A stretch of DNA of 64,000 nucleotides from Natrialba magadii ATCC 43099 (GCF_000025625.1 NC_013922.1:186001-250000); one strand, 5' to 3'; shown: positions 15,449 to 26,129, counted from the stretch's first letter. Translations and numbers: made by a program. Notes: generated by a model not told the origin, from the sequence alone.

Positions 15449-17323
15449 ATGGCTACTGAGGTTGCGCTGACCGTCGATCTCGCTATTATTCTCTTCAGTG
15501 CGACACTCGCCGGATTCGTCGCCAAACAGACGGGCCAACCGACGATCATCGCCTACATTCTCGCTGGGGTCGTGATCGGACCCGCGGCACTCGGGATCGT
15601 CGAGGTCAGCGAACTGACTGAATTGCTCTCCGAGCTCGGACTGGCGTTCTTGCTGTTCTTGCTCGGGATCAAGATGCGACTCGAGGAGATCCGTCACGTC
15701 CTCTCGCCGATCGTCAAGATTTCGATCCCGCAGATGATCGCGGTCTTTCTCGTGGGCGCAGGGCTCGCGTTCGCGCTCAACTTTGGTCCCATCGAGTCGG
15801 TGTTGATCGGTCTGGCGGTGATGTACAGTTCGACCGCGGTCGTCATCAAGATGCTCACGGACAAGGACGAGGCGACCTCGCTCCACGGAAAGCTCGATGT
15901 CGGTGTCTTGCTCGTGCAGGACGTCGTTGTCGTCATTATCCTGGCCGTCCTCGCGGCTGGACAGCCGGACAGCCTCGCCGAGGTTGCGACGACGCTCGCC
16001 GTCGTGCTCGTCCTCGTTGCGCTCGTGACGATTGCGGCGCTCGTCTCCTCGCGAACGGTCTTACCGGTCGTCTTCCGACGGATTGCAGACAACGAGGAAA
16101 TCTTCTTCCTCGTCGCCATCGCGTGGGCGTTCCTGTTCGTGTTCGTCTCCGATAACATCAACCTGTTTCTCGAGCCCCTGTTCGGGATCACGGCGTACCT
16201 TTCGATCGAGATGGGTGCGTTCATGGCCGGCGTGGCCATTGCACAGCTTCCGTACAGCAAGGAGTTACAGGACCGGGTCAACCCGCTGACGGACCTGTTC
16301 GTCATGGTGTTCTTCGTCTCGGTCGCGATCGACCTCGAGGCGGCACAGCTCTTTGAGTACGCCCCGGAGGCCATCATCGCTGCTCTGGTGTTGATGCCCG
16401 TGAAGTTCCTCATCTTCTTCTCACTACTCGACTGGCAGGGCTTTGGCTCCGAGACGACGTTCCTCGGCAGCATCAACATGATCCAGGTCAGCGAGTTCGG
16501 GATCATCGTCACCGCTGTCGCTGTCGAGGGTGGCTTCATCGAGCCCGAAATCCTCGGCTTCATGACGCTGCTTGCGATCTTCACGATGGCCGTCTCCGTA
16601 TACCTCATCGAGTTCAGCCACCAGCTATTCGAGCGCTTCGAGCCGACGATCACGCGGTTTACGAGCGAGGGCGACTTCGAAGGCGGCAAACAGGAGTATC
16701 GTGATCACGCGGTCGTCATCGGCTACGACAAGGTGACCCGAAACGCCCTCCCGTTGATTGCGGCCCACTACGACGACGTCGTCGTCATCGATCGAACGGT
16801 CGAACACATCAAGACGCTCGAGGCGAAAGGATACGACGCCGTCTACGGCGACTTCCGCAACGCGACGATTCGGAAGGATGTCGCCGTCTCGAAGGCCGAC
16901 TTCGTCCTCTCGTCGTCGGTCGACCCGGCGGTAAACTCGGTGTTACTCGAGTCGGTCGACGAGAAGGCGACGGTTCTTGTCGAAGCAGAGCGCCTCGAAG
17001 ACGCGCGTCTGCTCTACGAAAGCGGTGTTCACTGTGTGCTCATGACTCCATATCTCGCGGCCGACAAACTTGGAGAGTATCTGGAGACGTACCTCGAAGA
17101 GGGTAGCGACGACGAACTCGAGGCGGCACTCGAGTCGGATTTCGAGCTGTTAGAGAGTGCTGAGCCGTTCCCGGGGGTTGGTGGTGTTGGAACTGGAACC
17201 GGAACTGGAACTGGAACTGGAACTGGAACTGGTTCTGGTTCTGGTTCTGGTTCTGGTTCTGGTACTGGTCCTGGAACTGACGATTGCAATGACAGTGGCA
17301 GCGGAGGTGGTCTCGATGAGTGA
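15449..17323 (+). CDS. CPA2 cation:proton antiporter with TrkA-N domain, type-1 subunit of module A
   Basis: 624 aa. The membrane part (about 1-390) has KefB-like signatures: AKQTGQPTIIAYILAGVVIG, FLLFLLGIKMRLEEIRH, LVQDVVV with Gln157-Asp158 in the ion-site helix, and NMIQVSEFGIIV. The cytoplasmic TrkA-N (RCK) domain starts near 419 with DHAVVIGYDKVT, where the GxGxxG nucleotide loop is degenerate. The tail is a Gly-Thr then Gly-Ser dipeptide run encoded by a hexanucleotide repeat. Stop TGA overlaps the next ATG by 8 bases. Likely exchanges K+ or Na+ for H+; ion unknown. An AT-rich ACATTATTAC at 15411-15420 is a plausible promoter. Confidence 0.92.
   Translation: MATEVALTVDLAIILFSATLAGFVAKQTGQPTIIAYILAGVVIGPAALGIVEVSELTELLSELGLAFLLFLLGIKMRLEEIRHVLSPIVKISIPQMIAVFLVGAGLAFALNFGPIESVLIGLAVMYSSTAVVIKMLTDKDEATSLHGKLDVGVLLVQDVVVVIILAVLAAGQPDSLAEVATTLAVVLVLVALVTIAALVSSRTVLPVVFRRIADNEEIFFLVAIAWAFLFVFVSDNINLFLEPLFGITAYLSIEMGAFMAGVAIAQLPYSKELQDRVNPLTDLFVMVFFVSVAIDLEAAQLFEYAPEAIIAALVLMPVKFLIFFSLLDWQGFGSETTFLGSINMIQVSEFGIIVTAVAVEGGFIEPEILGFMTLLAIFTMAVSVYLIEFSHQLFERFEPTITRFTSEGDFEGGKQEYRDHAVVIGYDKVTRNALPLIAAHYDDVVVIDRTVEHIKTLEAKGYDAVYGDFRNATIRKDVAVSKADFVLSSSVDPAVNSVLLESVDEKATVLVEAERLEDARLLYESGVHCVLMTPYLAADKLGEYLETYLEEGSDDELEAALESDFELLESAEPFPGVGGVGTGTGTGTGTGTGTGSGSGSGSGSGTGPGTDDCNDSGSGGGLDE
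17187..17276. repeat. Hexanucleotide repeat GGAACT/GGTTCT inside antiporter gene
   Basis: About 15 consecutive 6-bp units, first GGAACT/GGAACC, then GGTTCT, then GGTACT/GGTCCT variants. In the antiporter frame it encodes a Gly-Thr/Gly-Ser run. The frame of the following gene is also open here (Glu-Leu, then Val-Leu runs) but starts downstream. Gain or loss of whole units changes tail length without breaking the frame. Confidence 0.92.
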
Positions 17324-24340: not shown

Positions 24341-26129
24341 CGGTCTCACCCCCGTTTTCGTCGTTTCGCCGATCCCGGTCGTCGTCGCGGTGGCGGGTTC
24401 GATCCCGGCCGCCGTCGCGACTGGCAGCAGTCGGCTCGACCGACTCGTTCGCCCGTAGGGTTTCGCTTCGCGCTCGCTCCGACAGTTCTGCCAGCCGCTG
24501 GTCGAACGCTTCGCGGTCGTCGAACGTTGCGAGCAACTCGGCGAGTTCAGTGCCGACGAGCCCAGCGGTCTCGACGACGTAGTCCGCACCGTCGTCGCGA
24601 AGCCGTTGTGCTGACTCCTCGGTGGTCGCTCGCACGATCGAGATCGTCTCGGGCGTCTCCTCGACCAGCCGCCGGTTGACGTCGTCCCGCGTAGCGACGC
24701 TTACGAGCACGTCCGCCTCGGCGACGTTCGCCTCCTGTCTGATCTCGCCGTGTCTGGCGTTCCCGAAGATGAACTCGTGGTCGCCTTCGGCAAGTTCCTC
24801 GACGTACTCCGCGCCGTCCTCGACGACGACCACGTCTTCGACGGTATCCTCGAGTAGCGTCGCGAGTTCTGCGGTGAATCGGTTGTAGCCGACGATGACG
24901 GCGTGGTCCTCGTACTCCACGGGAGCAGCTTCGATGGTGTCCTCACGCTCGAACCGCGAAAGGTACGGCTCGACTCGCGCGAAGATCTCTCGGTTGTAGC
25001 GAACGTAATACGTCGAAATCGGCATCGTCACCAGCGCCATCAGGCTGAGAAAGCCGAGGATCCCCTCCTCGACGAATCCCTCGTTGACCGCGAGCGCCCC
25101 GAGGACGACGGAGAACTCGCTCACCTGCAACATCGAGATGGTGCCGAGGAACGACGTTTCCATGTCGAAGCGCTGGCTGTAGAACAGCCCGAAGACGATG
25201 GCGAAGTTGATCACGAGCAGCGCCGCACACGCGAGCAGTGCCTCCTGCCAGTAGGCGAGCAACTGGCCGCGCTCCATCTGTAACGCGATGCTCGCGAAGA
25301 AGACGGCGATGAAGAAGTTCGTCGCCGGTCGCATCCGCTCTTTGAGTTCCGTGCTGTAGGGAAGCTGTGCCAGCGAGAGGCCCGCGATGAACGCGCCCAG
25401 TTCGACTGACAACTCGAGTGCCTCCGCGGCGAAGATGAAGACGAACGCCCAGGCGATGCCGACGGTGAACAGCGTGCTCTTGTTTGCGGCACTCGCCCGC
25501 AGTAATGACGGAAGGACGTACTTGCTGGCGGCATAGGCGACGAGGCCGATGAGGGCCATCAGGATGAGCACCCGGCCGATGCTCGTAGCGATTTCGGCGG
25601 TATCGTCGACGGTGCCGACGGCGAGAATCGCGAGCGCCAGCACGAGGTAGATGTCCTGGAAGATGAGGATGCCGACGTCTGCCTTGCCGTACAGCGTCTT
25701 GAGGTCGCCCTTGTCGCCGAGCACCTTGACGATGATCGGCGTCGCGCCGAACGTCGTGGCGAGTGCGAGCATCAGCGATTGAAAGAGTGTGAACTCGAGG
25801 GCGAGTGCGACTGCGGTCGAGGCGATTGCCTGCAACACCGCCTGGCCGACAGCGATTACGCCGACGGGGCGCATGATCTCCTTGATGTCGTCGAATCGCA
25901 TCTCGATCCCAAGCAAGAACAGCAGGAAGCCAAGCCCGAGTTCGGAGAGGATCTCGATCAGCTGGTCCTCCCCGACGATGCCGAGCCCGATCGGTCCGAC
26001 GACGACACCGGTCAGGATGTACGCGACGATCGTGGGCTGGCCGGTCAGCCTGGCGACGTAGCTGAGAACGGCGGCGGCGACGATGAGCAACGCGAAGTCC
26101 GTTGCGAGTGCGATTCCTCCGAGCGACAT
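24333..26129 (-). CDS. CPA2 cation:proton antiporter with TrkA-N domain, type-1 subunit of module C
   Basis: 598 aa. MSLGGIALATDFALLIV, ARLTGQPTIVAYILTGVVVG, FLLFLLGIEMRFDDIKE, LIFQDIYLVLAL with Gln158-Asp159, SMLQVSEFSVVLGAL. TrkA-N starts DHAVIVGYNRFT, again lacking the later glycines. The tail is a highly charged Arg/Asp/Asn stretch (roughly the last 30 residues), unlike the Gly-Thr tail of module A. It is the first gene of a four-gene minus-strand run (modules C then B). Confidence 0.92.
   Translation of the reverse strand: MSLGGIALATDFALLIVAAAVLSYVARLTGQPTIVAYILTGVVVGPIGLGIVGEDQLIEILSELGLGFLLFLLGIEMRFDDIKEIMRPVGVIAVGQAVLQAIASTAVALALEFTLFQSLMLALATTFGATPIIVKVLGDKGDLKTLYGKADVGILIFQDIYLVLALAILAVGTVDDTAEIATSIGRVLILMALIGLVAYAASKYVLPSLLRASAANKSTLFTVGIAWAFVFIFAAEALELSVELGAFIAGLSLAQLPYSTELKERMRPATNFFIAVFFASIALQMERGQLLAYWQEALLACAALLVINFAIVFGLFYSQRFDMETSFLGTISMLQVSEFSVVLGALAVNEGFVEEGILGFLSLMALVTMPISTYYVRYNREIFARVEPYLSRFEREDTIEAAPVEYEDHAVIVGYNRFTAELATLLEDTVEDVVVVEDGAEYVEELAEGDHEFIFGNARHGEIRQEANVAEADVLVSVATRDDVNRRLVEETPETISIVRATTEESAQRLRDDGADYVVETAGLVGTELAELLATFDDREAFDQRLAELSERARSETLRANESVEPTAASRDGGRDRTRHRDDDRDRRNDENGGETDV

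What the first reader, a model, noticed from the sequence alone, without database searches (positions are those of the whole stretch)
15449..26129. Three tandem two-gene modules of paired CPA2 antiporters with identical 8-base overlaps
Seen: six KefB-like membrane proteins with TrkA-N domains fall into two sequence types that alternate strictly. In each module type-1 is first and type-2 second, and their frames overlap by exactly 8 bases (ATGAGTGA, ATGACTGA, ATGTATGA) with a GG(A/G)GGTG(A) ribosome-binding site 5-6 bases before the second ATG. Known: CPA2 antiporters are normally homodimers. Inference: each module encodes an obligate heterodimer made at fixed stoichiometry, triplicated in one locus for different ions or conditions. 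I know of no description of such a paired system.
Basis: partly seen in the sequence, partly recalled or inferred. Interest (0 to 1): 0.8.

Follow-up and report, generated by a model that had tools for sequence, protein, structure and literature searches.

The report
Paired antiporter genes in alkaline-lake archaea
Six neighbouring ion-pump genes in a salt-loving archaeon form three two-gene units of a family whose two members are never found intact apart, which suggests that the two proteins work together as one lopsided two-part potassium/proton exchanger, although their physical pairing has not been tested.

Summary
Module 1 is on the + strand and modules 2 and 3 on the - strand. All three type-1/type-2 junctions overlap by exactly 8 bases, and a fourth pair with the same overlap lies on another replicon of the genome. 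In 391 Halobacteria genomes, type-1 occurs in 65 and type-2 in 63; in the two extra genomes type-2 is cut off by a contig end. No intact gene of either type was found alone. Of 130 distinct pairs, 100 have the 8-base overlap. The two types form separate clades whose trees mirror each other (r 0.91), and the pairing extends to Nanohaloarchaea and to bacterial MAGs. Most named carriers are haloalkaliphiles. The types have diverged in a complementary way. Type-1 keeps the KefC K+ site (QD) but has lost nucleotide-binding residues (GxGxxG 0/117). Type-2 keeps the nucleotide site (94/117) and the transport Asp (117/117) but varies the neighbouring residue (Q/D/E/N). Best explanation: a translationally coupled heterodimeric CPA2 K+(Na+)/H+ antiporter with one nucleotide-sensing and one altered regulatory domain. 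The heterodimer is inferred; co-transcribed homodimers are not excluded. I found no earlier description in the open-access library searched.

The parts
15449..17323 (+). Module 1 type-1 CPA2 antiporter (624 aa; TM5-6 motif QD; regulatory domain GYDKVT, no GxGxxG; low-complexity Gly/Thr/Ser-rich tail)
   Evidence: KefC-aligned residues
17316..17323 (+). 8-base overlap ATGAGTGA (type-2 start / type-1 stop) of module 1, preceded by GGAGGTG
17316..19034 (+). Module 1 type-2 CPA2 antiporter (572 aa; motif QD; GYGRQG nucleotide loop kept)
20811..22544 (-). Module 2 type-1 CPA2 antiporter (577 aa; GATP/QD; TM11 Lys replaced by Asn)
   Evidence: fold model mccdc75edc3e9, KefC/NapA-like
20811..20818 (-). 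8-base overlap ATGACTGA of module 2, preceded by GGAGGTGA
19136..20818 (-). Module 2 type-2 CPA2 antiporter (560 aa; motif DD; GYGRQG)
   Evidence: fold model mc01e488cd53b, KefC best match
24333..26129 (-). Module 3 type-1 CPA2 antiporter (598 aa; GATP/QD; regulatory loop GYNRFT; Arg at KefC 409 and 496 positions)
24333..24340 (-). 8-base overlap ATGTATGA of module 3, preceded by GGGGGTGA
22682..24340 (-). Module 3 type-2 CPA2 antiporter (552 aa; motif ED; nucleotide loop degenerate, DFEHGG)

Best explanation
Each module encodes the two unlike halves of one heterodimeric CPA2 cation/proton exchanger. Shown: the two genes are an ancient, always-linked pair. Type-1 keeps the complete KefC K+ site (Thr127, Gln155, Asp156) while its RCK/KTN domain has lost the glycine loop and usually carries acidic residues where KefC has the two AMP-phosphate arginines. 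Type-2 keeps the transport aspartate and, in most lineages, the nucleotide site, but varies the residue next to the aspartate. Inferred: the 8-base overlap with its own Shine-Dalgarno site couples translation, so the halves are made together. They dimerise through the scaffold helices and through an acidic-against-basic pair of regulatory domains. Nucleotide (AMP-like) binding on the type-2 side holds the exchanger in check. Type-1 performs K+/H+ exchange, and type-2 adds a second path whose ion or coupling ratio differs between lineages (QD, DD, ED, ND). The likely role is pH and cation balance in saline-alkaline habitats.
For: Strict co-occurrence and adjacency: 65 versus 63 of 391 genomes, the two exceptions at contig ends. 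100/130 pairs have the same 8-base overlap and 7 have 4 bases. Type-2 is one clade (97/94) and type-1 one clade (84/70), with bacterial pairs at the base of both; mirrored distances r 0.91, best of 1000 permutations 0.22. Complementary regulatory domains: GxGxxG 0/117 type-1, 94/117 type-2; Arg409+Arg496 pair 4/117 versus 82/117; acidic-on-type-1 with basic-on-type-2 in 96/113. Both halves keep a transport Asp (115/117 and 117/117) and type-1 keeps Q155/T127, residues that bind K+ in KefC (PMC11150392). KefC is a dimer whose RCK dimer is stabilised by AMP. Overlapping gene pairs in Haloferax encode heteromeric complexes in 45.2% versus 5.6% of distant pairs (PMC10666635). Fold: KefC best match for both.
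Against: No complex was modelled or observed. Linked genes have mirrored trees whether or not the proteins touch. Partner exchange in L034 and L123 shows that partners are not strictly locked. Both halves keep a transport Asp, so each could work as a homodimer. In module 3 the type-2 nucleotide loop is degenerate and type-1 has the two Arg, so the division of labour is not uniform. Haloarchaeal proteins are acidic in general, which weakens the charge argument; the bacterial type-1 members are not acidic at these positions.
Confidence: 0.66

Rival explanations
1. Two co-transcribed homodimeric antiporters with different ions (K+/H+ for type-1; K+ or Na+/H+ for type-2), made in equal amounts because both are needed together, without forming a common complex.
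For: All structurally known CPA members described in the papers read are homodimers (KefC, NapA). Both types keep the transport Asp. Type-2 ion motifs differ from type-1 in about half of pairs.
Against: Does not explain why type-1 lost nucleotide-binding features while its partner kept them, nor why neither gene was ever found intact alone among 391 genomes.
Confidence: 0.22
2. A catalytic type-1 K+/H+ exchanger homodimer with type-2 as a mainly regulatory membrane subunit, comparable to KefF for KefC.
For: Type-2 evolves faster (median distance ratio 1.24), keeps the nucleotide site, and varies at the residue next to the Asp. E. coli kefF/kefC also overlap by 8 bases.
Against: Type-2 keeps the transport Asp in 117/117 and the full membrane domain, and in two pairs type-1 is the one that lost it (QN).
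Confidence: 0.09
3. Simple operon inertia: two paralogues left side by side by an old duplication and moved together by horizontal transfer, with no functional coupling.
For: Both genes move together onto plasmids and into other phyla.
Against: Order, overlap and one-to-one presence persist over divergence down to about 25-30% identity, across four sub-lineages and at least two phyla. Random loss would have produced lone genes.
Confidence: 0.03

Closest known systems
KefC / KefB (E. coli glutathione-gated K+/H+ antiporters, CPA2)
   Same: Membrane fold plus C-terminal RCK/KTN domain; K+-site residues Q155, D156 and T127 kept in type-1; best match by sequence and fold.
   Different: KefC is a homodimer. 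Glutathione residues R498, R516 and N551 are not kept in the window proteins. No KefF/KefG-like neighbour seen. Equivalog cut-offs missed by far. Here there are two unlike genes.
RosB-like / YbaL CPA2 transporters
   Same: Short C-terminus after the KTN domain; type-2 KTN resembles YbaL (3fwz).
   Different: YbaL is a single gene; NF007950 cut-off 700 against 66-130 bits here; E. coli YbaL falls outside the pair clades.
NapA (Thermus) Na+/H+ antiporter, CPA2
   Same: Transmembrane fold (TM-score 0.79-0.87 by target); its DD motif recurs in module 2 type-2.
   Different: No KTN domain; homodimer; the TM11 Lys that pairs with the DD Asp is Asn in module 2.
UmpAB / PsmrAB two-component Na+(K+)/H+ antiporters
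   Same: Antiporters made from two paired genes; UmpAB are paired homologues, found by co-expression of both (PMC5484666 abstract).
   Different: Unrelated protein family (UmpAB: DUF1538; for PsmrAB from my own knowledge), not CPA2.

Membership tests
CPA2 monovalent cation:proton antiporters (general) | Na_H_Exchanger domain (PF00999) over cut-off | tested here: met
   All eight proteins, 94-174 bits against 26.2
CPA2 monovalent cation:proton antiporters (general) | NCBI subfamily model TIGR00932 over cut-off | tested here: not met
   53-166 bits against 238.3, although the model matches along its length
CPA2 monovalent cation:proton antiporters (general) | Conserved transport aspartate (KefC D156 / NapA D157) | tested here: met
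   115/117 type-1 and 117/117 type-2
KefB/KefC glutathione-gated K+ efflux | Equivalog models NF002973/NF002924 over cut-off | tested here: not met
   At most 164 bits against 752-804
KefB/KefC glutathione-gated K+ efflux | Glutathione-binding residues R498, R516, N551 | tested here: not met
   Absent in the eight proteins except R498 in P0008; R516 in 5/117 type-1
KefB/KefC glutathione-gated K+ efflux | K+-site residues T127, Q155, D156 | tested here: met
   Type-1: 117/117, 116/117 and 115/117; type-2 only partly (Q 59/117)
KefB/KefC glutathione-gated K+ efflux | Homodimer gated by AMP and glutathione | not testable with these tools
   Needs purification and transport assays
RosB-like/YbaL | NF007950 over cut-off | tested here: not met
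   66-130 bits against 700
Heterodimeric antiporter (works like UmpAB) | Both genes required and proteins form one complex | not testable with these tools
   Only genetic linkage and residue complementarity available
Heterodimeric antiporter (works like UmpAB) | Partners always encoded together | tested here: met
   391 Halobacteria genomes and 75 loci of genome contigs; remnants and contig ends are the only exceptions

The most novel reading that the evidence does not exclude
An obligately heterodimeric branch of the CPA2/KefC superfamily, present in haloarchaea, Nanohaloarchaea and some bacteria, in which one subunit is a constant K+/H+ exchanger with a charge-inverted regulatory domain and the other is the nucleotide sensor with an exchangeable ion-coupling motif (QD, DD, ED, ND), so that one organism builds several exchangers of different ion coupling from one template.
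Probability: 0.4. Interest if true: 0.82.

Novelty: new variant of a known kind. Interest (0 to 1): 0.62.

Why it matters
Cation/proton antiporters of this fold are described as homodimers in the structural papers read here. A natural, ancient heterodimeric branch would separate the two roles (exchange and nucleotide gating) into two subunits, allowing each to be mutated alone. It would also provide four natural ion-site variants in one genome. Finally, it offers a candidate for how haloarchaea balance pH and K+ in soda lakes, where the Natrialba magadii genome paper listed only a nine-gene pH-adaptation operon and 'three other' antiporter genes.

Tried and rejected
Lone genes as a refutation: each apparent orphan was checked. 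L078, L090, G135 (L036/L161), G284 and several short loci are contig or locus ends. L105 keeps the last residues of type-1. G059:C18 (L162) is a fragment. G265 is a decayed fusion of a type-1 front and a type-2 back with an in-frame TAG. Recent local triplication: rejected, because each module groups with the same module of other genera. Link to methylglyoxal synthase (KefB-like electrophile response): mgsA lies beside module 3 and beside pairs in about 11 other loci. It also sits at the same place in three congeners that lack pairs and carry one different 435-aa antiporter there, so it is best read as conserved synteny. A shared promoter motif GACAMCGYWTAA was not found in the window's genome (0 hits), although related motifs recur upstream of type-1 genes. 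Spread in bacteria could not be measured: the genome tool accepted no bacterial centre and plasmids gave none. Residue coupling between partners was not attempted, since 117 pairs are too few.

Full report
What is in the window. Six CPA2-type antiporter genes lie between 15449 and 26129. Each protein has an antiporter domain (PF00999) followed by a TrkA-N/KTN domain (PF02254), all above cut-off. They fall into two types (type-1 39-60% and type-2 35-47% identical to the first member of their own type, about 23-26% between types). Module 1 is on the + strand (type-1 15449-17323, type-2 17316-19034). Module 2 is on the - strand (type-1 20811-22544, type-2 19136-20818), and so is module 3 (type-1 24333-26129, type-2 22682-24340). 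Every junction overlaps by exactly 8 bases, with a GGAGGTG, GGAGGTGA or GGGGGTGA site 5-6 bases before the second start. The modules are therefore not tandem, since modules 1 and 2 converge. A fourth pair with the same overlap is on replicon C3 (L009:5449-8998). The replicon sizes (3,751,858, 378,348 and 254,950) fit Natrialba magadii from memory, and the near-identical neighbours are Natrialba species.

Co-occurrence. Profiles of type-1 and type-2 were searched in 145 and then 391 Halobacteria genomes. The type-2 profile scores are sharply two-humped: type-2 hits were 494 bits or more and type-1 hits 169-226 bits. Type-1 was found in the same 24 genomes. In the larger set (at most three candidates scored per genome) type-2 was in 63 and type-1 in 65 genomes. 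The two extra genomes, G135 and G284, have type-1 at a contig end with type-2 cut off. Among 75 further loci from genome contigs the pair is again the rule, in haloarchaea, Nanohaloarchaea and MAGs labelled Bacteroidetes, Salinibacteraceae, Gemmatimonadetes and others; MAG binning was not checked. Apparent orphans turned out to be contig ends, one fragment (L162), one truncated type-1 (L105) and one decayed fusion (L189). Of 130 distinct pairs, 100 overlap by exactly 8 bases, 7 by 4 bases, and the rest lie between a 180-base gap and a 17-base overlap.

Evolution. On a maximum-likelihood tree of 15 diverse pairs with E. coli KefC, YbaL and other CPA2 proteins, type-2 is one clade (97/94) and type-1 is one clade (84/70). 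Pairs from Gemmatimonadales and Verrucomicrobia MAGs (L143-L146) sit at the base of both (wider tree). The duplication that made the two types is therefore older than these lineages. Distances among 117 type-1 proteins and among their type-2 partners correlate at 0.91 (best of 1000 permutations 0.22). This shows inheritance as a unit, not physical contact. L034 and L123 have partners from different sub-lineages with good support, so re-pairing has happened.

What each half keeps. Residues were read off alignments with E. coli KefC, whose K+ is held by Q155, D156 and T127 and whose RCK dimer binds AMP through R409 and R496 among others (PMC11150392). Type-1: T127 117/117, Q155 116/117, D156 115/117; no GxGxxG in 117; R/K409 with R496 in only 4/117, usually replaced by Glu or Asp. 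Type-2: D156 117/117; residue 155 is Q 59, D 35, E 15, N 7, S 1; GxGxxG-like loop 94/117; R/K409 with R496 82/117. In 96 of 113 archaeal-type pairs, type-1 is acidic and type-2 basic at one or both of these positions. In KefC the cleft between the two regulatory domains is strongly basic, so an acidic-basic pair would favour a mixed dimer; that step is inference. Glutathione residues are not kept. The four pairs of this genome carry type-2 motifs QD (module 1), DD (module 2), ED (module 3) and ND (replicon C3), each typical of its own sub-lineage. Modules 2 and 3 also have Asn instead of the TM11 lysine in both partners. In KefC, changing Q155 to Asp abolished K+ binding, so these type-2 halves probably differ in ion or coupling; this is inferred. 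Module 3 departs from the pattern, with a degenerate type-2 loop and Arg in type-1.

Structure. AlphaFold models (type-1 mean pLDDT 79.7, type-2 82.8) match KefC best (E 4e-20 and 8e-17). The membrane part matches NapA with TM-score 0.87 and 0.79 normalised by the target. Full-length superposition is poor (rmsd about 14), presumably because the regulatory domain is placed differently. No complex could be predicted here.

Setting. The named isolates with pairs are mostly haloalkaliphilic genera: Natrialba, Natronococcus, Natronorubrum, Natronolimnohabitans, Natrarchaeobius, and Halorubrum vacuolatum (lifestyle from general knowledge). Natrinema plasmids, one of them from N. versiforme, also carry one, so the link is not exclusive. 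Within the genus, four genomes have the six-gene cluster. Three lack it and carry, at the same site between orf14714 and mgsA, one different 435-aa antiporter. By elimination these three are probably the neutrophilic Natrialba species (inference).

Mechanism and verdict. Overlapping gene pairs in Haloferax are tightly coupled in translation and encode subunits of heteromeric complexes in 45.2% of cases against 5.6% for distant pairs (PMC10666635). Together with absolute linkage and complementary loss, the best-supported reading is a heterodimeric CPA2 exchanger (0.66). The main rival is two homodimers made together (0.22). Paired antiporter genes are known in other families (UmpAB, PMC5484666). 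In the searched open-access library I found no description of a paired CPA2 system, and the N. magadii genome paper mentions only a nine-gene pH-adaptation operon and three other antiporter genes (PMC3403918). The library excludes most subscription papers, so earlier mention cannot be ruled out.

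Noticed in passing
window 26459-26827 (-) and 26871-27473 (+): Methylglyoxal synthase (PF02142) and a glyoxalase-like gene (PF00903) lie directly beside module 3. mgsA is also close to pairs in other Natrialbaceae, but sits at the same site in congeners without pairs.
   Followed up: partly
L186-L188 (G001, G002, G006) between orf14714 and mgsA: Three congeners carry a single 435-aa CPA2 antiporter at the site where this genome has six genes: the same chromosomal slot with different antiporters. 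In some other genera (L097, L102, L166) that single antiporter lies next to a pair.
   Followed up: partly
upstream of type-1 genes, e.g. L164, L165, L043, L044; window about 22583-22600 (-): Strongly conserved core-promoter-like motifs: TTTCGACACCGTTAAT ending about 27 bases before module-1-type starts, and GACAACGYATAAA ending about 38 bases before module-2-type starts. This suggests a leaderless or very short leader for type-1.
   Followed up: partly
window 17188-17279: 15 copies of TGGAAC-like hexamers give a Gly-Thr/Gly-Ser tail at the end of module 1 type-1; it is absent from the other three type-1 proteins of this genome.
   Followed up: no
L189 (G265:C1:2755037-2756704): Decayed fusion of the front of a type-1 gene with the back of a type-2 gene, with an in-frame TAG: a deletion between partner genes.
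   Followed up: partly
window 14714-15217 (+): Small conserved protein without a Pfam match, beside the cluster in about 19 loci and also in congeners without pairs.
   Followed up: no
L009:4135-5307 (-) and L009:10337-11530 (-): The plasmid-borne fourth pair is flanked by two TnpB-like genes, and further out by a glutamine synthetase-like and a UspA-like gene (named by eye from the translations).
   Followed up: no
NC_000913.3:47246-49631: E. coli kefF and kefC also overlap by 8 bases, an independent precedent for this overlap in an antiporter with an accessory subunit.
   Followed up: no
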